From the IMG/VR virus record IMGVR_UViG_3300046170_000274, positions 1 through 64,000 of that record: a stretch of DNA of 64,000 nucleotides; one strand, written 5' to 3'. This document shows, piece by piece, positions 19,666 through 35,171 of the stretch. This DNA comes from a virus. The position numbers and the translations under genes were made by a program. Every line of letters starts with the position of its first letter. Within the stretch, counting starts at the first letter, position 1. Under the pieces are notes generated by a model. It was given only the letters and a program-made list of their open reading frames with translations. It was not told where the DNA came from and ran no database searches.

Positions 19666-20661
19666 ATGGCGTTTAAATTAAACGATAGGGTCAAAGAATC
19701 CAGTTCGACTACTGGGACAGGTACGTTTACACTTGGTGGTGCGGTAACAGGTTTTGAAACTTTTGCTGCAGGTATCGGTGGAGGCAATACGACATACTAT
19801 TGTATTTTTGAAAACGGTACTAATAACTTTGAAGTTGGTTTTGGAACTTTAAATGGCGGAGCAAGTACACTTGCTAGAACTAATGTTATCTCCAGTTCTA
19901 ATAGCGATGGTCTTGTAAACTTTGCAGGTGCAACAGAAGTATTCTGTACAGTGCCTGGTGCAAAGATTAGTTTACCTAAACCAGAAGAGTATGGTTCTTC
20001 ATCAGCGCCAAAAATAATCACAGTTAAAGTTGGTACTAAAACAACAGCACATCCATATTCAGGTCAAGGATCTTCAAGTGCATATTTTCTTGATGGATTA
20101 GAATCACCTGCGATTACATTTTCAGGTGCAGATTCATCATACAAATATTACTATAGATTTGATCAATCTGACTCTACTAACTCAAGTCACCCTTTAAGAT
20201 TTTATTTAGAAGCAGATAAATCTACGGCTTACACAACAGGTGTAACCACTAATGGTACAGCTGGATCATCTGGTGCGTATACACAAATAGCAGTAGATGC
20301 TAACACACCAAATATTTTATACTATCAATGTTCAAGTCACTCATTAATGGGTAACTTTGCAAATACTATATCTAATTATGTAAATGGAAATTTAACTGTA
20401 GGATCTCAATTAATAATGCCTGATGTAACATCAGGTAAAATACTTGTAGCAGATGGTACAAGTTATCAAGAATCTGCAATGTCAGGTGATGCAACAATTG
20501 CATCTGGCGGAGCATTAACACTAGCTAACTCTGGAGTATCAGCAGCTAGCTATACAAATTCATCAATCACCGTAGATGCAAAAGGTAGAGTTACTGCAGC
20601 ATCTAGTGGATCAGGAGGAGCAACTAACGGATTTGTGATTGCAATGTCGATCGCACTCTAG
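19666..20661 (+). CDS. Tail fibre-like protein with cupredoxin-like metal motif
   Basis: 331 residues. The N-terminal module (MAFKLNDRVKESSSTTGTGT) is Gly/Thr-rich and probably attaches the fibre. The middle domain holds HPLRF and, later, YYQCSSHSLMGN: His, then C-x2-H-x2-M, the ligand order and spacing of type 1 copper proteins of the amicyanin kind. The C-terminal module is beta-repeat (GKILVADGTSYQ; SSITVDAKGRVTAASSG). Copper binding is inferred from the motif only. A host-attachment role is inferred from its place. Confidence 0.6.
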   Translation: MAFKLNDRVKESSSTTGTGTFTLGGAVTGFETFAAGIGGGNTTYYCIFENGTNNFEVGFGTLNGGASTLARTNVISSSNSDGLVNFAGATEVFCTVPGAKISLPKPEEYGSSSAPKIITVKVGTKTTAHPYSGQGSSSAYFLDGLESPAITFSGADSSYKYYYRFDQSDSTNSSHPLRFYLEADKSTAYTTGVTTNGTAGSSGAYTQIAVDANTPNILYYQCSSHSLMGNFANTISNYVNGNLTVGSQLIMPDVTSGKILVADGTSYQESAMSGDATIASGGALTLANSGVSAASYTNSSITVDAKGRVTAASSGSGGATNGFVIAMSIAL

Positions 20662-21014: not shown

Positions 21015-21458
21015 ATGTCGTATTTAGGAAACGCACCAAAACAAAATTTAAATACCATGAACTCTCAACAGTTCAACGGTGATAATTCAGAAACAAACTT
21101 TACACTTTCACAAACTGTAGCTAACACAGCAGAAGTAGAAGTCTATGTCGGAAACGTTAGACAAGATCCATTTTCAGCTTATTCAATATCTGGTGGTACA
21201 ACTTTAGCTTTTACAGCGGCACCTCCGACAGGTACTGGAAATATCTATGTAGTGTTCCAAGGTAAGTCTTTAGGTAATATTGAACCAGGAGCCAATAGCA
21301 TTCAAGCAGGAATGATTTCTGCAATCAACGGTGGATATAAAAATCTAGCAACAGTTTCAGAATCAATAACAGTTGCTGCAACGGACAACATGATGTTATG
21401 TGGTCCAGTATCTTTTACAGCAACAGTCACAGTAAACGGGACATTAACGGTAGTATAA
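21015..21458 (+). CDS. Tail-fibre anchor module, cassette 1
   Basis: 147 residues. MSYLGNAPKQNLNTMNSQQF, then FTLSQTVANTAEVEVYVGNV and RQDPFSAYSISGGTTLAF, a domain common at the base of T7-type fibres. It ends with a beta tail (GPVSFTATVTVNGTLTVV) paralogous to the end of the gene at 24443. It starts the first of two similar adhesin cassettes. Confidence 0.65.
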   Translation: MSYLGNAPKQNLNTMNSQQFNGDNSETNFTLSQTVANTAEVEVYVGNVRQDPFSAYSISGGTTLAFTAAPPTGTGNIYVVFQGKSLGNIEPGANSIQAGMISAINGGYKNLATVSESITVAATDNMMLCGPVSFTATVTVNGTLTVV

Positions 21459-21459
21459 T

Positions 21460-22050
21460 ATGGCAACATTATTTGTAGATAAAGTAGACCCACAATCAGG
21501 AACAAGTTTAGAGATAGGTAGTTCAGGAGATACTATTACTATTCCATCTGGTTGTACAATTACCAATAACGGAACACAAACAGGTTTTGGTGGAACAATG
21601 ACACCAGCTTTTTATGCAGAATTAAGTGCAAATCAAGCTACTACTGACGGAGGAAATTCTAAAATACAATTTAATACAGAAATTTTAGATTCAGATAATG
21701 CTTATGATAATTCCTCAAATTATCGTTTTACTGTACCAAGTGGCGAGGGTGGAAAATATTTTATTTTTACAGGATTGTCGGTATATGGAACTGTCGCATT
21801 TAGTGTTTATGATGCTTATTTAAAAGTTTATAAAAATGGAAGTCAATTTATGACAGAACAACATTATGAGCATGATAGTACACCAAATGGCTCTGCATCT
21901 TTTCACATAGGTAGAATTATGAATTTATCTGCTGGTGATTATTTAGAAGTCTATTTATATGTTGATACAAATGGTGGTAATCCATCTGTTCAAGGTGGAA
22001 CAGGCTCATCAAATAACACATATTTTGGTGGCTACAAAATAATTACATAG
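21460..22050 (+). CDS. C1q-like short fibre protein A
   Basis: 196 residues. The N-terminal module ends in SSGDTITIPSGCTITNNGTQ and GFGG; then a jelly-roll pattern typical of C1q/TNF-like phage tips: FNTEILDSD, FTVPSGEGGKYFIFTGLS, LKVYKNGSQF, NLSAGDYLEVYLYV, GGYKIIT. First of a tandem family. Such domains form trimeric receptor-binding tips; the receptor is unknown. Confidence 0.65.
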   Translation: MATLFVDKVDPQSGTSLEIGSSGDTITIPSGCTITNNGTQTGFGGTMTPAFYAELSANQATTDGGNSKIQFNTEILDSDNAYDNSSNYRFTVPSGEGGKYFIFTGLSVYGTVAFSVYDAYLKVYKNGSQFMTEQHYEHDSTPNGSASFHIGRIMNLSAGDYLEVYLYVDTNGGNPSVQGGTGSSNNTYFGGYKIIT

Positions 22051-22057
22051 GAAAATT

Positions 22058-22651
22058 ATGGGAACAATTAAAACAACAAACATAGAACCAATCGCGGACA
22101 ACGGCACAGTAACCCTGGGTAGTTCTGGGGATACGTTTACGGTACCTTCAGGTGTAACTGTTAACATGTCTAGTGCAACACAGACAGGTGTTGGTGGAGC
22201 TAACACTCCAGCTTTTCTTGCATATTCAGCAAATGGTCAAGAACAATCAATATCAAACTCAACATCAACAAAATTAGATTTTGAAACTGAACTTTATGAT
22301 ACAGATAATGCTTTTTCTTCAAATACAACATTTACCTGTCCATCAGGTCAGGCTGGAAAATATCAATTCACTGCAAATATTTCTTGGTACACTTCTTCAT
22401 CTAGTAGTTTTGAAAGAGCATTTATAATGTTTTATAAAAATGGTTCTCAAATATCAAATTTTGAAAGAAGAGGAACAGATATTTATAGAGGAAGCTACTC
22501 TCAACAATCTTTAAATAACACAATAGACGTAAATTGTGCTGTTGGAGATACTGTTGAAGTATATGGTTGGTTTGAAAGTATCACAGCCACATATGTGACT
22601 AGTAGTTATACAATGGCGAATTGGTTTAAAGGATTTAAATTAATTACATAG
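22058..22651 (+). CDS. C1q-like short fibre protein B
   Basis: 197 residues, paralogue of the genes on either side. Shared landmarks: SSGDTFTVPSGVTVNMSSAT, GGANTPAF, LDFETELYDTDNAF, FTCPSGQAGKYQFTA, MFYKNGSQI, VGDTVEVYGW, FKGFKLIT. The middle loops differ from the paralogues, as expected for diversifying receptor-binding surfaces. Confidence 0.65.
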   Translation: MGTIKTTNIEPIADNGTVTLGSSGDTFTVPSGVTVNMSSATQTGVGGANTPAFLAYSANGQEQSISNSTSTKLDFETELYDTDNAFSSNTTFTCPSGQAGKYQFTANISWYTSSSSSFERAFIMFYKNGSQISNFERRGTDIYRGSYSQQSLNNTIDVNCAVGDTVEVYGWFESITATYVTSSYTMANWFKGFKLIT

Positions 22652-22659
22652 GATAAATT

Positions 22660-23199
22660 ATGGCATCAATTATAAAAGCAAATCAACTACAGGACTTTGG
22701 CGGTAACAGCATTATAACGTCTGATGGTGCGGGGACTATTACTCTGTCTTCAGGAATGAATACAGCGGTTGCTGCAGGGACTAATAACACTCCAGCATTT
22801 TCAGTAAAACAAAGTTCAGCACAAACTGGTATTGCAAATAATACTCAAACTATTGTTACATTTGATACAGAAGAATTTGATACAGATAATGCTTTTGCAT
22901 CAAATAAATTTACAGTTCCAAGTGGAGAAGCTGGTAAATATTTTTTCTGTGCAACTCTTATATTCTTATCTTCTGCTGATTGGGAAGCTGGTTCTCTTGG
23001 TATATATAAAAATGGTACTATTTTAGATGTAGGATATGGTAGAAATTTTTATTATAATACTTGGAAAATTGCAACAGTAGCAGATTTAGCAGTAAGTGAT
23101 TATATAGAATTAAAATGTTATCAAAACTCTGGTGGCTCTTTAAATTTAGGTGCTGGTAGAGATAATGTAAATTTTCAAGGATTTAAATTAATAGGATAG
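22660..23199 (+). CDS. C1q-like short fibre protein C
   Basis: 179 residues: MASIIKANQLQDFGGNSIIT, GTNNTPAFSV, FDTEEFDTDNAFASNKFTVP, GKYFFCATLIF, GIYKNGTILD, VSDYIELKCYQN, FQGFKLIG. Third member of the first tandem trio, closest in the FDTE-NAFASNKFTVPSG region to the cassette 2 members. Confidence 0.65.
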   Translation: MASIIKANQLQDFGGNSIITSDGAGTITLSSGMNTAVAAGTNNTPAFSVKQSSAQTGIANNTQTIVTFDTEEFDTDNAFASNKFTVPSGEAGKYFFCATLIFLSSADWEAGSLGIYKNGTILDVGYGRNFYYNTWKIATVADLAVSDYIELKCYQNSGGSLNLGAGRDNVNFQGFKLIG

Positions 23200-23202
23200 A
23201 TT

Positions 23203-23715
23203 ATGGCATTAAGTAAAATAGACGCGGTAAACTTTTTAACAGGTACAATACCTCAAGGTAACGTGGCCAATGCATCTTTGGGTGCGGTTACAGCTTTACC
23301 AGCAGGTGTAGGTGGTAAGGTTTTGCAATCTGTAACTGCAACAGATTCAGCAAATTATTCAGTAACATCAACTTCTTTTGTAAATAGTTCTAATGGTTTG
23401 ACATTAAATATAACACCATCAGCAACTACAAGTAAAATTTTTGTACAAGTTTCAATAGCAAATCATTTTGCACCAAGTGGACAAAATTTTTTTATGACTA
23501 TTTATAGAGATTCAACTAATCTTGGTGGAGCAAATGGTATGAGTATTCATGGTGGTTTTAGTGAAGCAGTACCAGTTAGTATGAGTATATTAGATAGTCC
23601 ATCATCTTCATCACAATTAACTTATCAAGTTTATTCAAGAGTTACTGGGGGTACTAGCGAATATGGAAGTTCTAGTTGTGTATCAACAATAACAGCATTT
23701 GAGATAGGAGCATAA
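23203..23715 (+). CDS. Fibre-region protein, family G (cassette 1)
   Basis: 170 residues. The N-terminus (TGTIPQGNVANASLGAVTAL, GGKVLQSV) is nearly the same as that of the gene at 26986; the body is a beta sandwich (LTLNITPSATTSKIFVQVSI; MTIYRDSTNLGG; LDSPSSSSQLTYQVYSRV), ending TAFEIGA. Likely another adhesin tip type. Confidence 0.6.
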   Translation: MALSKIDAVNFLTGTIPQGNVANASLGAVTALPAGVGGKVLQSVTATDSANYSVTSTSFVNSSNGLTLNITPSATTSKIFVQVSIANHFAPSGQNFFMTIYRDSTNLGGANGMSIHGGFSEAVPVSMSILDSPSSSSQLTYQVYSRVTGGTSEYGSSSCVSTITAFEIGA

Positions 23716-23717
23716 TT

Positions 23718-24053
23718 GTGAGTAATGTAGTAAAAGCAATTTTAAAAATAAATCCAAACGCACAAGTAAGTGTAAAAAATGATGACGTTAATGAAATCAT
23801 TTGGGAAAATGGAACAACACCAATATCAAAAGAAGATATAGAAGCACAATTCCCAGCAGTTGAATTAGATACGGCTATGGCAGATTTAAGAGCTAAAAGA
23901 AATCAATTATTACAAGACACAGACTTTCATGCACTGTCTGACAATACAATGTCAGCAGATATGACTACTTACAGACAAGAATTGAGAGATATAACTAATG
24001 GAATAACAACAGTCGAACAAGCGAATGCTGTTGTATTTCCAACCAAACCATAA
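23718..24053 (+). CDS. Tail assembly chaperone-like protein (GTG start)
   Basis: 111 residues from GTG at 23718. The N-terminal module (AILKINPNAQVSVKNDDV; WENGTTPISKEDIEA) is shared with the gene at 27491. The C-terminal module LRAKRNQLLQDTDFHAL...YRQELRDITNG is the pattern of phage tail assembly chaperones. It probably helps fibre folding. Confidence 0.6.
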   Translation: MSNVVKAILKINPNAQVSVKNDDVNEIIWENGTTPISKEDIEAQFPAVELDTAMADLRAKRNQLLQDTDFHALSDNTMSADMTTYRQELRDITNGITTVEQANAVVFPTKP

Positions 24054-24079
24054 TATAAGTACAACAAAGGAGAACAAAA

Positions 24080-24430
24080 ATGGCATCACTATCAAGCAAG
24101 ATTAAAACTTACTGCGCTGACAACGGCGTAGCAGAAGTTGACTTTACGGTAGACGTTTTGCTTCAGGATGACTCAAACGGTCAGGGACCTTACATCAAGA
24201 CATGGAATGTGTCAGGTGTAGCTCAACCTACTGCAGAGCAACTGAATGCTGTAGATTCTGCTGCAGATCTCGAAGAGAGACAAAATGCAGTTAGAGCTAC
24301 AAGAAGAAACGCCTACGGTGATCTAGGTTCACAGTTAGACATGCAGTACCACGACAATGTTGATGGTACAACTACTTGGAAAGACCATGTAGAAGCTGTT
24401 AAGACTGCAAACCCGATCCCAACTGAATAA
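24080..24430 (+). CDS. XkdW-like tail protein
   Basis: 116 residues. YIKTWNVSGVAQPTAEQLNA, ATRRNAYGDLGSQLDMQYHD and TTTWKDHVEAVKTANPIP follow the XkdW-type pattern found next to phage fibre genes. AAAGGAG site. It closes cassette 1; no counterpart in cassette 2. Confidence 0.6.
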   Translation: MASLSSKIKTYCADNGVAEVDFTVDVLLQDDSNGQGPYIKTWNVSGVAQPTAEQLNAVDSAADLEERQNAVRATRRNAYGDLGSQLDMQYHDNVDGTTTWKDHVEAVKTANPIPTE

Positions 24431-24442
24431 GGAGATTAACAA

Positions 24443-24898
24443 TTGGCTTACGTTGGAAAAGCTCCTCAAACAGGAGCGTATCAAATTTTGGATGACATCT
24501 CATCGTCATTCACCGGATCAACACCAGGACCGTTTAACTTAACGGTTAACGGGACAGCTGTGTCTCCAGGTAACGAAGCTAATTGTATAATCTCTATTTC
24601 AGGTGTAGTTCAAGATCCAGCAGCCTTTACAATAACAGGTTCACAGATTTCTTTTAGTTCAAACCCAGCTAGTTCTGATACTTTTTTTGGTACAGTTCTT
24701 GGTGATACATTTGACATTGGAACTCCAACAGACTCGACAGTAACAGCTGGTTCTTTGTCATCAACTTTTTTCGTGAAAAATTCACAAACATGGAGTAGTA
24801 TATCAATGTCAGGTTCAAATAACGGAGCCTTGGTTGGACCCGTTACAGTTTCAGGGACGATCACTATACCATCAGGGAGTACATTCGTAATTTTATAA
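24443..24898 (+). CDS. Tail-fibre anchor module, cassette 2 (TTG start)
   Basis: 151 residues from TTG at 24443, behind AAGGAG. VGKAPQTGAYQILDDISSSF, GVVQDPAAFTITGSQISF and GDTFDIGTPTDSTVTAGSLS follow a fibre N-terminal pattern. The end GPVTVSGTITIPSG is paralogous to the 21015 gene. Stop overlaps the next ATG. Confidence 0.65.
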   Translation: MAYVGKAPQTGAYQILDDISSSFTGSTPGPFNLTVNGTAVSPGNEANCIISISGVVQDPAAFTITGSQISFSSNPASSDTFFGTVLGDTFDIGTPTDSTVTAGSLSSTFFVKNSQTWSSISMSGSNNGALVGPVTVSGTITIPSGSTFVIL

Positions 24899-25503
24899 TG
24901 AGTAAACTAGAAACAAACACTATTGATACCGTATCAGGAACTTCGACATTACAAGTTGGAAGTACAAACACGTCTACTATTACTTTAGGTGTAAGTGGTG
25001 ATACAATCAATGTACCATCAGGAGTAACGATTGCTAACTCTGGAACAGCAACAGGTTTTGGTGGTGCTAACACTCCAAATTTTTTTGTATATAAAAATTC
25101 AAGTCAAACTATTAGTGATGCTACAGCTACAAAAATAACTTGGACATCAGAAGTTTTTGATACAGCTAGTGCTTTTGCATCAGATAAATTTACAGTACCA
25201 TCTGGTCAAGCTGGTAAATATCTTTTTAGTTTTGCTTCTCATACTTATGATGCAAGTGAAAAATTAACTCAATCTAATAAGGCTTTTTATAAAAATGGAT
25301 CACAAGTAGGTTCGTTAGATAGAACTGATGGTACTTATGAATTTGTCACAGATAATAGAGTTTATACTATATTATTAAATCTTTCTGTTGGAGATTATAT
25401 AGAAACCTATGTTTGGGGAAATACAACTGACAATTCATCATTCTCAGTTTATGGAGAGGGTCAATATTATACATACTTTCAAGGATTTAAAATTATAGAA
25501 TAA
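24898..25503 (+). CDS. C1q-like short fibre protein D
   Basis: 201 residues: GVSGDTINVPSGVTIANSGT, GFGGANTPNFFVYKNSSQTI, SEVFDTASAFASDKFTVPSG, QAGKYLFSFASHTYD, FYKNGSQVGS, LNLSVGDYIETYVW, FQGFKIIE. First C1q-like gene of cassette 2; overlaps the anchor stop by one base. Confidence 0.65.
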   Translation: MSKLETNTIDTVSGTSTLQVGSTNTSTITLGVSGDTINVPSGVTIANSGTATGFGGANTPNFFVYKNSSQTISDATATKITWTSEVFDTASAFASDKFTVPSGQAGKYLFSFASHTYDASEKLTQSNKAFYKNGSQVGSLDRTDGTYEFVTDNRVYTILLNLSVGDYIETYVWGNTTDNSSFSVYGEGQYYTYFQGFKIIE

Positions 25504-25515
25504 GGAAAATAAAAT

Positions 25516-26071
25516 ATGGCAGACGGAACATTAAAAGTAGGAACAATAACAACGAGCTCTGGATCAGGGACGATTACTCTTGGTCAATCTGGGGATACGA
25601 TTACAGTACCATCAGGTGCAACTGTTGGCAGGAGCAATGGCTAACACTCCAGCTTTTCAAGCAACTTTATCTGGCAATCAAGATATAGCGGATAATACAA
25701 CAGCTAAAGTTACTTTTGATACAGAAACCTTTGATTCTGATGGTACTTTTGCATCAAATAAATTTACTGCATCAATTGCTGGTAAATATTTAATTGTTGT
25801 TAAATTAACTTATTATGATGCTAGTGGAAATTTAAATGATACTTCTATGTCTTTATATAAAAATGGATCAGAATTTGAAACTTCAATAAAAAAAAGAGGT
25901 GGTGAAGATGTTGAAAGAGATATAATTGCTGTTTCAACAATTTTAAATTTAGCTGTAAATGATTATATAGAAGTATATGCTTATGGAAATACAGATAATA
26001 GTGGTGCATATACTATTTTAGCAGCTACTAATGAAAGTCATTTTTCAGCATATAGGATTATAGGAGCATAA
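25516..26071 (+). CDS. C1q-like short fibre protein E (one frameshift)
   Basis: The N-terminus MADGTLKVGTITTSSGSGTI (ATG 25516) continues to DTITVPSGATV, then the frame shifts near 25625 to reach ANTPAFQATL, FDTETFDSDGTFASNKFTAS, SLYKNGSEFE, LNLAVNDYIEVYAYGN and SAYRIIGA. Homology to its neighbours runs across the shift, so one ~185-residue protein is intended. Confidence 0.6.
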
Positions 26072-26682
26072 TGACAGCAATTTTAAAAGTAGACACGATA
26101 CAAGATACATCAGGTAATAACATTATCAACGAGAGTTCTGATACTATTACTATCGGTGCATCTGGTGATACTACTAATATTATTGGAACATTACAGAATA
26201 ATGGTTCTGCTTTAATTAGTGGAATTACAGAAGCTGACCAATGGAGATTAACAGCTGATTATACTTATACTGGTAGTGGAGATTTGGATTCAAATTTAGA
26301 AAGAGTTGATTCTTCTGGTTGGGGAAAAATTGGAACAGGAATGTCACAAAGTTCTGGTATTTTTACTTTTCCTTCAACTGGAATTTGGCTTGTAAAATTT
26401 AATACAACTGCATATTTAAATGGAGACAGAAGAAGTTCTTATGCTTCTATAAAAAACACAACAAATAATTCATCATACAATAGTATTTCAACAGCTGTTA
26501 CACATATTAAACAAGCAGAATCTAATACAACCTATATACAATCATCTACAGAAACTTTATTAGATGTAACTGATACATCAAACCATAAAGTAAAATTCAA
26601 TGTTTTTACATCTGCAACTACTTTAGGAGATACTGATACTAATTATACACACATGATGTTTATTCGTCTGGGGGCTACATAA
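26071..26682 (+). CDS. C1q-like short fibre protein F (divergent)
   Basis: 203 residues: LKVDTIQDTSGNNI, SDTITIGASGD, then EADQWRLTADYTYTGSGDLD, FTFPSTGIWLVKF and FIRLGAT. The N-terminal module matches the family; the globular part is a more distant jelly-roll-like domain. ATG overlaps the previous stop. Confidence 0.55.
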   Translation: MTAILKVDTIQDTSGNNIINESSDTITIGASGDTTNIIGTLQNNGSALISGITEADQWRLTADYTYTGSGDLDSNLERVDSSGWGKIGTGMSQSSGIFTFPSTGIWLVKFNTTAYLNGDRRSSYASIKNTTNNSSYNSISTAVTHIKQAESNTTYIQSSTETLLDVTDTSNHKVKFNVFTSATTLGDTDTNYTHMMFIRLGAT

Positions 26683-26683
26683 A

Positions 26684-26983
26684 ATGGATAGAGATTATTT
26701 TCAAGAAGCATTACATAAATTTAATACTGATACACCTAATTGGTATGGTTGGAAAACACATGATGATAATGGAAATAAAATTCCTAACGATCAAAGAATG
26801 ACTTACGCAAATATTAAAGTTATTAAAGATGGTGCAACTATGCCAACTGAAGCAGAAGTAAATGCAAAAATACAAGAATTAAAAGATGAAGAAACAAATG
26901 CAGAAACTAAAAAAGCCTCTGGTAAACAGAAGCTAAAAGATTTAGGATTGGACGACGACGAAATTAACGCGTTGATAGGATAA
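26684..26983 (+). CDS. Small fibre-region accessory protein
   Basis: 99 residues, charged: YFQEALHKFNTDTPNWYGWK, KKASGKQKLKDLGLDDDEIN, ALIG. The C-terminus is common in small proteins downstream of phage fibres, probably chaperones. Present only in cassette 2. Confidence 0.5.
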   Translation: MDRDYFQEALHKFNTDTPNWYGWKTHDDNGNKIPNDQRMTYANIKVIKDGATMPTEAEVNAKIQELKDEETNAETKKASGKQKLKDLGLDDDEINALIG

Positions 26984-26985
26984 TT

Positions 26986-27491
26986 ATGGCGATAACTAGA
27001 CTAGGCGGAGCGAATGCAATATCAGGCACTATACCTCAAGGTAATATTGCTAACGCATCTTTAGGAGCAATATCTGCTTTACCAGCAGCTATTACTACTG
27101 GTAAGGTTTTGCAAGTTGTGTCCACAAGTAATACTTCAAGTCTTTCAACATCTTCATCATCATATCAAGATGGTTTTTCTGTTTCTATTACTCCATCTTC
27201 TACTTCAAATAAAATTTTAATTATGGCACAAAATGGAAAATTAGATTCTAACACAAGTGGTAATACTATTAGATTAGGTTTGCATAGAGATAGTACTTTG
27301 TTAAGTACATCTTTATATAAATTTGATAGTGCAAATCCACATGGAGCTCAAACAATAGTTCATTTAGATTCTCCGTCAAGTACATCATCAATTATCAAAT
27401 AAGATTTAGAAACAATCAAGGCAGTACCACTACAACTTTACCTTTTACAAGTGCTATGGGTGTTCTAACTGCTTATGAGATAGGAGCATAA
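26986..27491 (+). CDS. Fibre-region protein, family H (cassette 2, frameshifted)
   Basis: The N-terminus (SGTIPQGNIANASLGAISAL) is paralogous to 23203. After LDSPSSTSSI the frame is lost near 27390; one base over it continues YQIRFRNNQGSTTT to LTAYEIGA, matching the paralogue's end. Intended length ~168 residues. Confidence 0.6.
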
Positions 27492-27805
27492 TGAAAATAG
27501 AAAATAAAGTAATAGATGCAATACTTAAAATTAATCCAAACGCAGAAGTAAATGTTAGTGGAGATGATGTTGATCAAATAGTTTGGCACAATGGAACAAC
27601 ACCTATTTCTAAAGCTGACATAGAAGCTAAAATGATAGAGTTACAAGCAGAGTATGATGCTGAAGAATGGAAAAGAAATAGACAAGCAGAATATCCAACA
27701 CATGAAGATTGTATTCATGCATTATTAGATGGTGGCGATACCCTTACAGAACTACAGTCTAAACGAACAGCTACTAAAAATAAATATCCAAAATCAGGAG
27801 CATAG
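27491..27805 (+). CDS. Fibre chaperone-like protein with swapped C-terminus
   Basis: 104 residues. The N-terminal module (AILKINPNAEVNVSGDDV; HNGTTPISKADIEAKM) is shared with 23718, but the C-terminus (RNRQAEYPTHEDCIHALLDG; LQSKRTATKNKYPK) is a different, widespread tail module. Clear domain swap between paralogues. Confidence 0.6.
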   Translation: MKIENKVIDAILKINPNAEVNVSGDDVDQIVWHNGTTPISKADIEAKMIELQAEYDAEEWKRNRQAEYPTHEDCIHALLDGGDTLTELQSKRTATKNKYPKSGA

Positions 27806-28258: not shown

Positions 28259-28987
28259 ATGGCATCATCTTTTTCAACAAACTCAAAATTAGAACTTGTA
28301 ACCACTGGTGAAAAAGCCGGTCTTTGGGGTACAATTACTAATACAAACTTACAAATATTAGAACAATTATCTACAGGTTATTTATCATCTGCACAACTTG
28401 CAAGTGGTGATCTTACTTTAGCACTAGACAATGGTGCTACTTCTAATGGTAAAAATTTATATATAAAACTAACAGGTACACTTGGTGCAAACAGAAATGT
28501 AACAATACCTGATAGCGCTGAAAGAGTTATTATATTTGAAGATGCAACAACAAGAGGAACATCTACTCTATATACAATAACAGTTAAAACTGTTTCAGGA
28601 TCCGGGGTCGTATTACCTATAGGATCAACATCACTAGTATATTCAGATGGTACAAATGTTAGTCTTGGAATAAGACAAAAAGGTTATGTAACATTAAACT
28701 CTTCAACAATTACTGCATATACTGCAGTCGATGGTGATCAAATTTTAGCTAATACAACAGCTAACCCAATCACTGTAACACTACCTGCATCACCTGCAAC
28801 AGGTTCTGAAGTTACATTTGTAGATGCTAGAGGAACTTTTAATAATAACAACTTGATTATAAATAGAAACAGTCAACCAATTAACTCAGGTACATCTAAT
28901 TTAACTTTAAGCACGGCAGGTCAAGCTTTTTCATTAGTGTATGTGGATTCAACAAGAGGTTGGGCATATAAAACCAACACGGCGTAA
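28259..28987 (+). CDS. Tail fibre-like protein
   Basis: 242 residues. The N-terminus LVTTGEKAGLWGTITNTNLQ, then ILEQ, is a pattern often seen in marine-phage fibres; the body is beta-rich with a terminal domain around TFVDARGTFNNNNLIINRNS. Precedes the nozzle-like gene. Confidence 0.6.
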   Translation: MASSFSTNSKLELVTTGEKAGLWGTITNTNLQILEQLSTGYLSSAQLASGDLTLALDNGATSNGKNLYIKLTGTLGANRNVTIPDSAERVIIFEDATTRGTSTLYTITVKTVSGSGVVLPIGSTSLVYSDGTNVSLGIRQKGYVTLNSSTITAYTAVDGDQILANTTANPITVTLPASPATGSEVTFVDARGTFNNNNLIINRNSQPINSGTSNLTLSTAGQAFSLVYVDSTRGWAYKTNTA

Positions 28988-32795: not shown

Positions 32796-33042
32796 ATGTC
32801 ATTTATAGAAACAGAAGCTTCAGTAAGATACGAAATAGTTAATGGTAAAAAGGTTATGATTATCACACCTAAAAGTGAAGTTACCTTTAACTAATATAAG
32901 AACAGGTCAAGAATATATGTCAGATGCAGAATCGGATGCTGATGTAAATAACCCTGAAACAGATACTAAAAGAGAAGACATACGTAGAGATGTTAAAATA
33001 ACAGTAGAAGAATTTAACTTAGGAGCAGGTTCTGAGTTGTAA
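32796..33042 (+). CDS. Small protein (one frameshift)
   Basis: MSFIETEASVRYEIVNGKKV, then the frame is lost near 32880; one base over it continues PLTNIRTGQEYMSDAESDAD to FNLGAGSEL. One ~81-residue protein is probably intended. Unknown function. Confidence 0.45.
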
Positions 33043-33070: not shown

Positions 33071-34298
33071 ATGGCAATTTCAAGAATGCAAGAACCCAGA
33101 CAGAATTACGGACTAGGAAGCTTTGTAAAGAAAGTTACAAAAAAAATAACTAAACCTTTTACAAAAGTTGCTAGTAAAATTGTACCAAAAGAAATAGCAG
33201 GTATTATGAGAGTTGCTGCACCTTTTTTACCACCAGGATACAGAGAAGCTGCATACTTGTTAGGTACAGCAAAACAAACAGGTAGAATTAGTCCAATGGA
33301 TTTAGCCTTAGCTGCAGCACCTACGTTTTTTAATAAAACGCAAATGGGTCAAGGTATCAAAACTAAAGTAGGTAATTTTACATTACCGGGTATGGATAAA
33401 AATTTAGGTGAAATGGCTGTAGGTACTATAAAAAATGTTGGAGGTAGTAAAGATGCTACAAAAGGTTTTTTTGGTACAGGGGGCGAGTTTAATTTATTAA
33501 AAGGTTCTATGTTAACAAAACCTGATGGTAGTTTAAGTTTTTCAAAAGCAGCAGGAATAGGGACTGGTTTATTATCTTTAATACAATCTGCTAGCACACC
33601 AGAAGAAGCAGGAAATGCTTTAGCATCTTCAACAGGAAATTCTGATGATTATCAAAGAGGTTATGATATGTTTAATACGTTAAATACAGATGCTTTTAAA
33701 ATAGATGATCAGTATGTACAACACAGCAGCTAACGGTGGTTTAATGAGAACTAACTATGCAATGGGTAGTGATGATGAACCAAAACCATTACCTAATGAC
33801 CCTACAGAACCGGTCAATCCTTTTAGACCAAAACCAATAGGTCCTTTTCCATCTAAAATGGCTGACATGAAAAGTTACAGTGATTACTATAAAAATTTAG
33901 ATCTAGAAAAAGCTAAAGAAATGTTTATAGAATTTAATGGAAGAGAACCTATAGACATGCAAGAACTATTACAGTTTTTTAAAGTAAAACAACAAGCTGC
34001 AGATGGTGGTTTAATGAGAAGTAATTATGCTCTTGGATCAATGCCCACGAAACAAGAAAGTGGTCTAGGAGGGCTTCCAATTGAGGCAGATATGAGGTAT
34101 ACTGGTGGCTTCATGCCATATGGTGCAGTTGAAAAAGCCGATGACGTGCCTGCTAGATTAAGCAAAAATGAATTCGTATTTACCGCAGATGCTGTAAGAG
34201 CAGCAGGTGGTGGTAGTGTACAACAAGGTGCTAAAAAAATGTATGACGCTATGAAAAAATTAGAACAACAACCTGAAGCAAAAGGAGCAATGGCATAA
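33071..34298 (+). CDS. Internal virion-like protein with GG motifs (one frameshift)
   Basis: The first part starts MAISRMQEPRQNYGLGSFVK with a basic N-terminus and hydrophobic helix (IMRVAAPFLPPGYREAAYLL). The frame shifts near 33715, then NTAANGGLMRTNYAMG and, ~90 residues later, AADGGLMRSNYALG form two copies of the GG motif. The end ADDVPARLSKNEFVFTADAV, then RAAGGG, resembles a domain of phage tail/internal proteins. ~408 residues intended. Confidence 0.55.
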
Positions 34299-35171
34299 TG
34301 GCTGAAGAAATAATTAATAAAACGATAACCACAGCACCCGATTATTTACAACCGGGTATAGAAAAATATTTAGAAGGTGCAACATTACAAGCTGGTCAAA
34401 GAATGGATACCTCCAAGTTTGCACCAGGTGTTGCAGGCATAGGTTCACTACAACAACAAGCACAACAATTAGCAGCAACTCAAGCAGGACTTGGTACTTT
34501 ACAATTTGATCCAAACACAGGAACAGTTTCTGGTGTTCAAGGTCAAGGTGTTGCAGGGTATCAACCTTTTTTACAAGGAGCAGCTGCAATGAGTGGTCCA
34601 CAAGCTTATCAACAATTTGAATCTCCTTATCAACAAGCAGTAAGAGATGCTACACTACAACAATTTGATCAACAAGCAGCAGCTAGACAACAACAAATAA
34701 GTGATCAAGCTGTAGCTGCAGGTGCATTTGGTGGTGGACGTGAAGGAGTACAACAAGCACAATATCAAAACAAATCTGATATGGATAGAGCTTTACTTGC
34801 AGCACAATTAAATCAAGCTGGATTTAGTCAAGCTAATCAATTAGCTGCACAAGGATTTGGTCAACAATCACAATTAGCACAACTACAACCTCAACTAGCT
34901 CAACAAGGTATTGGTTTAGCTCAAGGTTTAGGACAACAAGATTTTGGATACAGACAAGCAGTAATGGATACAGGGTCAACAAGCAAACAGAATGGCAGCG
35001 TATGAACCTATCGAAAGACTTGCGAGATTTGGTCAAGGTCTAACTGGTGTCGGAGGCGGATTAGGTTCTGTTCAAACAACTTATGGAACACCTCCTCCTC
35101 AACAAAGTCCAATGGCAGGAGCGCTACAAGCAGGAATAGGAGCATTTACATTAGGTAAATTGTTTAGTTAA
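34298..35171 (+). CDS. Gln-rich internal virion-like protein (one frameshift)
   Basis: MAEEIINKTITTAPDYLQPG, a Gln/Ala-rich helical body (LQQQAQQLAATQAG; AAGAFGGGREGVQQAQYQNK). The frame shifts near 34975 and continues RMAAYEPIERLARFGQGLTG to FTLGKLFS. ~290 residues. The AFGGGRE element recurs in putative internal virion proteins of marine phages. Confidence 0.55.

What the first reader, a model, noticed from the sequence alone, without database searches (positions are those of the whole stretch)
21015..27805. Duplicated adhesin cassette with six C1q-like fibre genes
Cassette 1 (21015-24430) and cassette 2 (24443-27805) have the same order: anchor module, three tandem C1q-like genes, a TGTIPQGN-type gene, and a chaperone sharing AILKINPNA. 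Each has one private accessory gene. The phage thus carries at least six related but different tip proteins, which may give a mixed or switchable set of receptor-binding tips.
Basis: seen in the sequence. Interest (0 to 1): 0.75.

Follow-up and report, generated by a model that had tools for sequence, protein, structure and literature searches.

The report
Eight-socket swappable receptor-binding tips in marine phage
This ocean virus of bacteria (related to viruses of the abundant SAR11 bacteria) carries two rows of four small recognition proteins, each bearing a start sequence specific to its position while its receptor-binding end is swapped freely between viruses and between positions, which probably lets the virus display a mixed and fast-changing set of host-recognition tips.

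Summary
Row 1 is A1 [1a, 1b, 1c, 1d + chaperone] X1; row 2 is A2 [2a, 2b, 2c + Y2, 2d + chaperone]. Five tips are C1q-like; 2c looks like a related TNF/C1q-type head; the two TGTIPQGN genes are predicted TNF-like lectin folds. It is not a recent duplication: A1 and A2 are 28% identical in the window, whereas each is mostly 71-100% identical among about 90 other viral contigs with the same order. The main result: the first 12-35 residues of each tip track the position, the head behind them does not. Same position with different head family gives 61% tag identity; different position with same head family gives 12%. Near-identical heads (91-99%) occur in different positions behind different tags, even across rows. 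Cultured pelagiphages HTVC115P and Lederberg carry a row-2-type array. No reverse transcriptase, invertase or integrase was found, and the genes are tightly packed on one strand, so a co-displayed mixed set is favoured over an on/off switch. Genes 2b and 2d of this record are frameshifted, most likely by sequence error. Docking and virion composition are untested.

The parts
21015..21458 (+). A1: row-1 anchor, T7-tail-fibre-N-like / phrog_18673 'tail fiber protein'
   Evidence: phrog_18673 2.4e-10; 8 of 33 orthologues match PF03906 at E down to 0.003; orthologues 71-99% identical
21460..22050 (+). tip 1a: tag MATLFVDKVDPQSG + C1q-like head
   Evidence: Pfam C1q 1.7e-4 (below curated cut-off); tag/slot statistics
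22058..22651 (+). tip 1b: tag MGTIKTTNIEPIADNG + C1q-like head
22660..23199 (+). tip 1c: tag MASIIKANQLQDFGGN + C1q-like head
   Evidence: phrog_15750 4e-7
23203..23715 (+). tip 1d: tag MALSKID.. + TNF-like-lectin head (TGTIPQGN type)
   Evidence: AlphaFold2 pLDDT 83.4, Foldseek to PLTL/BC2L-C; profile match to PDB 9efk orf22 C-terminus 2.7e-21
23718..24053 (+). Ch1: tail-fibre assembly chaperone paired with tip 1d
   Evidence: PF16778 Phage_tail_APC 2.3e-7, above cut-off; T heads followed by a chaperone in 59 of 70 cases
24080..24430 (+). X1: XkdW-like protein that closes row 1
   Evidence: PF09636 4.5e-12, phrog_9114 6.7e-31; 53% identical to HTVC115P gp61
24443..24898 (+). A2: row-2 anchor
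   Evidence: phrog_18673 3.4e-53; profile matches fibre gp28 of cyanophage P-SCSP1u (8i4m, residues 573-673) 4.5e-10; 57-60% identical to HTVC115P gp60 and Lederberg_2
24898..25503 (+). tip 2a: tag MSKLETNTIDTVSG + C1q-like head
   Evidence: AlphaFold2 pLDDT 88.8; Foldseek C1QL3 E 2.3e-8
25516..26071 (+). tip 2b: tag MADGTLKVGTITTSSG + C1q-like head; frameshift near 25628 in this record
   Evidence: 5' end matches HTVC115P gp58 at 97.6% over 41 nt
26071..26682 (+). tip 2c: tag MTAILKVDTIQDTSGN + separate TNF/C1q-type head family
26684..26983 (+). Y2: small partner gene of the 2c head type (probable chaperone)
   Evidence: follows this head family in 37 of 56 cases; no convincing Pfam or PHROG match
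26986..27491 (+). tip 2d: tag MAITRLG.. + TGTIPQGN-type head; frameshift near 27388 in this record
   Evidence: intact homologue at L001:1437-1925
27491..27805 (+). Ch2: chaperone-like partner of tip 2d
   Evidence: phrog_9114 3.8e-27; identical protein in L001

Best explanation
The region encodes two host-recognition arrays. Each has one conserved anchor protein (A1 or A2) followed by four short fibre proteins. Each fibre has a short N-terminal address tag that belongs to its position (1a-1d, 2a-2d) and a head, mostly of the TNF/C1q type (glycine-rich or large 370-aa heads in some relatives). The tag most likely decides where the fibre docks on the anchor or tail; the head binds a host surface molecule. 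All eight genes are probably expressed together, so each virion would carry a mixed set of tips. Heads, with their chaperone when they need one, are exchanged by recombination; the conserved tags and flanking genes supply the homology, so a new head ends up joined to the tag of its new position. Shown here: order, tags, head families, head exchange between phages and between positions, chaperone pairing, purifying selection. Inferred: docking by the tag, trimerisation, simultaneous display, host-receptor binding.
For: Slots assigned by gene order alone and start codons by adjacency: tag identity (residues 2-12) 0.61 for same slot with different head family, 0.12 for different slot with same head family; unchanged (0.615 against 0.121) when families are reassigned from heads only. 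134 cassettes keep the tag order; the 6 exceptions are all interchange of the similar 1c and 2c tags. Slot labels need 10 changes on the tag tree and 135 on the C1q head tree. Head identity stays at 0.36-0.41 while anchor DNA identity rises from 0.6 to 0.98. Single-position sharing: L091/L092 share only 1d, L124/L129 and L152/L159 only 2b. The same head in other slots behind another tag: L103 1b = L089 1a 99%, L015 2b = L166 2a 98%, L175 1b = L161 2a 96%. L001 matches the window at 99.4% from inside gene 2d onward, yet upstream only the 5' ends of tip genes match. Isolates: HTVC115P gp60-gp55 is A2-2a-2b-2c-2d-chaperone with tags 13/14 and 14/14 identical to 2a and 2b; Lederberg carries TGTIPQGN-type heads in all four row-2 positions. 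Natural anchor-head fusions in L120, HTVC115P gp64 and Lederberg_5 tie anchors and heads to one fibre.
Against: No virion data: neither docking of tags on A1/A2 nor simultaneous presence of eight tips is shown. The predicted monomer gives no regular structure for the tag. Genes 2b and 2d of this record are frameshifted. Row 1 is not universal: some relatives have a single anchor-head fusion instead (L120, HTVC115P). Most loci are metagenome fragments, in which repeated tags could cause some assembly chimeras. The head tree is weakly supported (44 of 250 inner branches starred). L001 starts inside the array, so one crossover would explain it.
Confidence: 0.72

Rival explanations
1. The four proteins of a row are consecutive segments of one linear fibre (as in T4 gp34-gp37), so position-specific N-termini are segment joints and only the last one meets the host.
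For: Fixed gene order with position-specific N-termini; position d has a different tag type, the larger heads and the chaperone.
Against: All four positions carry globular C1q/TNF-type heads at the C-terminus and all four turn over, with no position kept constant as a shaft would be.
Confidence: 0.14
2. The tips are alternatives: they compete for one socket or are switched on one at a time, giving virions with different tips.
For: Tags of positions a-c are distantly alike, and the 1c and 2c tags interchange.
Against: Tags are otherwise position-specific; no reverse transcriptase, resolvase or integrase; same strand and nearly gapless genes; promoter and terminator matches at chance level.
Confidence: 0.08
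3. The conserved 5' ends are kept mainly as recombination landing sites or for translation start, not as docking tags.
For: At codons for identical residues the tag has higher codon identity than the anchor of the same contig pairs (e.g. 0.78 against 0.5-0.6).
Against: A smaller rise at the 5' end is seen in several backbone genes too; the amino-acid sequence of each slot is conserved and different from the others, which neither role requires.
Confidence: 0.06

Closest known systems
Branched tailspike complex of Ackermannviridae (TSP1-TSP4; PMC11414711)
   Same: Several receptor-binding proteins per virion, conserved N-termini that set the place in the complex, variable C-termini exchanged by recombination in the conserved 5' ends.
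   Different: There the joints are gp10-like XD and TD domains on large tailspikes; here no gp10-like domain was found, the tags are about 12-35 residues, the tips are small C1q/TNF-type heads, and there are eight positions in two rows.
C1q-domain host-recognition genes in metaviromic islands of marine phages (Mizuno et al. 2014, PMC3909814)
   Same: C1q-domain proteins next to the tail fibre in pelagiphage-type genomes, hypervariable head with better conserved N-terminus; XkdW and tail fibre assembly genes in the same islands.
   Different: That work treats single genes in another pelagiphage group; in the passages read it reports no multi-slot arrays, position tags or movement of heads between positions.
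Tail fibres of marine T7-like podoviruses (cyanophage P-SCSP1u gp28, PMC10575957; Lederberg_5)
   Same: A2 is related to a mid-fibre stretch of gp28; A1 weakly resembles the T7 fibre N-terminus.
   Different: In those phages anchor and head lie in one polypeptide; here the anchor is a separate short protein followed by four separate tips.
Distal tail-fibre adhesin swapping in T-even phages (Tetart et al. 1998; from citations and general knowledge)
   Same: [quoted passage not shown] chaperones travel with fibres.
   Different: One adhesin per fibre there; here eight positions and exchange between positions.

Membership tests
C1q/TNF superfamily (five C1q-like tips) | C1q-like jelly-roll head | tested here: met
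   Profile to adiponectin 1.5e-20; AlphaFold2/Foldseek TM 0.82 to C1QL3
C1q/TNF superfamily (five C1q-like tips) | Match above the Pfam C1q curated cut-off | tested here: inconclusive
   Window 1a scores 22.2 against a cut-off of 23.7; 28 of 74 family members match C1q at E<=0.001, best 2.4e-9
C1q/TNF superfamily (tips 1d, 2d) | TNF-like jelly-roll | tested here: met
   AlphaFold2 of 1d to TNF-like lectins, E 4e-5, TM 0.71-0.76 normalised by target; 2d by homology only
C1q/TNF superfamily (tip 2c) | TNF/C1q jelly-roll | tested here: inconclusive
   Single members match BclA_C and TNF; Caprin-2 E 0.13; no fold predicted
Ackermannviridae-type branched tailspike complex | gp10-like XD domains | tested here: not met
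   No such match for the anchors in Pfam, PHROG or PDB sequence searches
Ackermannviridae-type branched tailspike complex | Several receptor-binding proteins joined in one virion complex | not testable with these tools
   Needs virion structure or mass spectrometry
Diversity-generating retroelement | Reverse transcriptase in the genome | tested here: not met
   No PF00078 match in the 66.9-kb record
Invertible tail-fibre switch | Site-specific recombinase and inverted repeats | tested here: not met
   No PF00239 or PF00589 match; no framing inverted repeat

The most novel reading that the evidence does not exclude
A position-code system: eight sockets on the virion, each read by its own short N-terminal tag, draw interchangeable heads (C1q, TNF-lectin, glycine-rich, large fibre, with chaperones) from a pool shared across marine phages, so that host recognition is combinatorial and can change one socket at a time.
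Probability: 0.55. Interest if true: 0.78.

Novelty: new variant of a known kind. Interest (0 to 1): 0.64.

Why it matters
Pelagiphages are among the most abundant viruses in the ocean, and how they keep pace with host diversity is an open question. If right, their specificity is set by eight separate, individually replaceable tips rather than by one fibre. That would explain why strains with nearly identical genomes differ completely in recognition genes, and it gives a simple way to annotate receptor-binding proteins: read the tag. It is testable in cultured phages (HTVC115P on HTCC7211, Lederberg on HTCC1062) whose tip genes are annotated mostly as hypothetical proteins.

Tried and rejected
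Recent tandem duplication: rejected, because A1 and A2 are separate conserved families and heads do not pair across rows. Diversity-generating retroelement, invertase, integrase: none found. Decay of all but one tip: rejected for the clade. In this record the frameshifts near 25628 and 27388 lie at tag/head or head/3'-end junctions, but frameshifts also occur near 32880 and 34950, and the exact junction sequences were found in no other viral contig, so sequence error is preferred though not proven. Programmed frameshifting or a separate start at ATG 25637 was considered; no relative supports it. Codon conservation of tags as proof of recombination: weakened by a control on backbone genes. PDB search for A1 gave only antibody light-chain background. 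Literature searches for short position tags on phage fibres gave nothing on the point.

Full report
What is there. The window lies in a 66.9-kb IMG/VR virus record. Its tail region is related to phage 023Pt_psg01 and to pelagiphages HTVC027P and HTVC023P. From 21015 to 27805 all genes lie on one strand with gaps of at most 26 bases. Read by comparison with relatives, they form two rows: A1 [1a 1b 1c 1d+Ch1] X1 and A2 [2a 2b 2c+Y2 2d+Ch2].

Head folds. The C1q-like genes match adiponectin and C1q-like proteins by profile (1.5e-20 and about 1e-11), and the predicted structure of 2a (pLDDT 88.8) matches C1QL3 and also tail fibres of cyanophages A4 and A-1(L). The TGTIPQGN gene 1d is predicted with good confidence (mean pLDDT 83.4, head blocks 85 or more) and matches TNF-like lectins PLTL and BC2L-C, so it too is a tip. 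2c is a third head family with weak TNF/BclA_C signals.

Not a recent duplication. A1 and A2 share 28% identity in the window, although a profile comparison confirms common descent. Across other contigs A1 orthologues share 71-99% and A2 orthologues 78-100% with the window's copies. Among 227 non-redundant loci, 90 carry an A1-type and 88 an A2-type cassette; the labels are approximate for fused anchors.

Position tags. Tips were numbered by gene order only, with start codons chosen by closeness to the gene before. Residues 2-12 are then 76% identical in the same slot with the same head family, 61% in the same slot with a different family, 12% in different slots with the same family and 11% otherwise; the signal fades by residues 37-48. 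Assigning families from heads alone gives the same result (0.615 against 0.121). Tag order was kept in all of 134 cassettes except for six interchanges of the similar 1c and 2c tags. Head families per slot differ: 1a-1c mostly C1q; 1d and 2d TGTIPQGN-type or a 370-aa fibre; 2a-2c C1q, 2c-type or TGTIPQGN-type.

Heads move. On a tree of 256 C1q heads the slot label changes 135 times, on the tag tree 10 times. Head identity is flat (0.36-0.41) over anchor DNA identities from 0.6 to 0.98 and rises only above that. Some pairs share a single slot and nothing else (L091/L092 1d; L124/L129 and L152/L159 2b), and some contigs carry the same head in another slot behind another tag (L103 1b and L089 1a 99%; L015 2b and L166 2a 98%; L175 1b and L161 2a 96%). 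L001 is 99.4% identical to the window from position 27363 onward, yet upstream only the 5' ends of the tip genes match.

Chaperone logic. TGTIPQGN-type heads are followed by a chaperone-like gene in 59 of 70 cases, the 2c family by Y in 37 of 56, C1q heads and 370-aa fibres almost never. The partner thus goes with the head type and not with the slot. In L001 the chaperone and the last 30-odd residues of 2d match the window while the rest of the head differs, as expected if the chaperone recognises the C-terminus; this is inference.

Cultured examples. HTVC115P (host HTCC7211) has X1-, A2-, 2a-, 2b-, 2c-, 2d-type genes and a chaperone in order (gp61-gp55); its 2b tag is identical to the window's over 14 residues although its A2 is only 57% identical. 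Lederberg EXVC029P (host HTCC1062) has the same row with TGTIPQGN-type heads in all four positions; its tags are less close, clearest for 2c. HTVC023P and 023Pt_psg01 have four and three tandem genes with similar N-termini and glycine-rich heads.

Switch or mixture. No reverse transcriptase, resolvase or integrase was found; promoter-like and terminator-like sites are at chance level. dN/dS is about 0.38 for C1q and TGTIPQGN-type heads and 0.14-0.18 for anchors, so heads are under weaker but real purifying selection. A mixed display is the simplest reading; it is inferred, not shown.

Frameshifts. Genes 2b (near 25628) and 2d (near 27388) are broken in this record; so are genes near 32880 and 34950 outside the arrays. 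L001 has an intact 2d homologue. The junction sequences were not found elsewhere. Sequence or assembly error is the likeliest cause, but imprecise recombination cannot be excluded for the two junctions in the arrays.

What is known. C1q-domain genes of marine phages are known to be hypervariable with a better conserved N-terminus (PMC3909814), and branched complexes of four tailspikes with conserved N-terminal joints are known in Ackermannviridae (PMC11414711). I found no description of an eight-slot array with short position tags; the paper library is incomplete, so this is not proof of novelty. Hence 'new variant of a known kind'.

Noticed in passing
window 32796-33040 and 34298-35170: Two further frameshifts in genes outside the arrays; 50 and 7 relatives respectively have the reading frame open.
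   Followed up: partly
L167:4264-7065 and L184:4164-6028: Contigs in which row 1 runs straight into row-2 slots (1a then 2b-2c-2d; 1a-1b then 2b), so X1, A2 and several slots are missing: deletion by recombination or assembly chimera.
   Followed up: partly
L120:4709-5650, HTVC115P gp64 (L239:3531-4388), Lederberg_5 (L240:4327-5115): Anchor and C1q- or TGTIPQGN-type head fused in one protein at the place of row 1.
   Followed up: partly
L085:2235-7931 and L083:5090-9297: HTVC023P gp59-62 and 023Pt_psg01: tandem tips with tag-like N-termini and glycine-rich (PF21722) heads; their stalk matches the C-terminal half of window 28259-28987.
   Followed up: partly
L129, L124, L126, L107 (slot 1c); L062, L165 (row 2): The 1c and 2c tags are interchanged, which suggests equivalent sockets in the two rows.
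   Followed up: no
window 23203-23715: Its family matches the C-terminus of PDB 9efk 'orf22' (18 chains) at 2.7e-21; the phage behind that entry was not identified.
   Followed up: no
window 19666-20661: Fibre gene upstream of the arrays varies from about 125 to 446 aa among relatives, with a conserved N-terminus.
   Followed up: no
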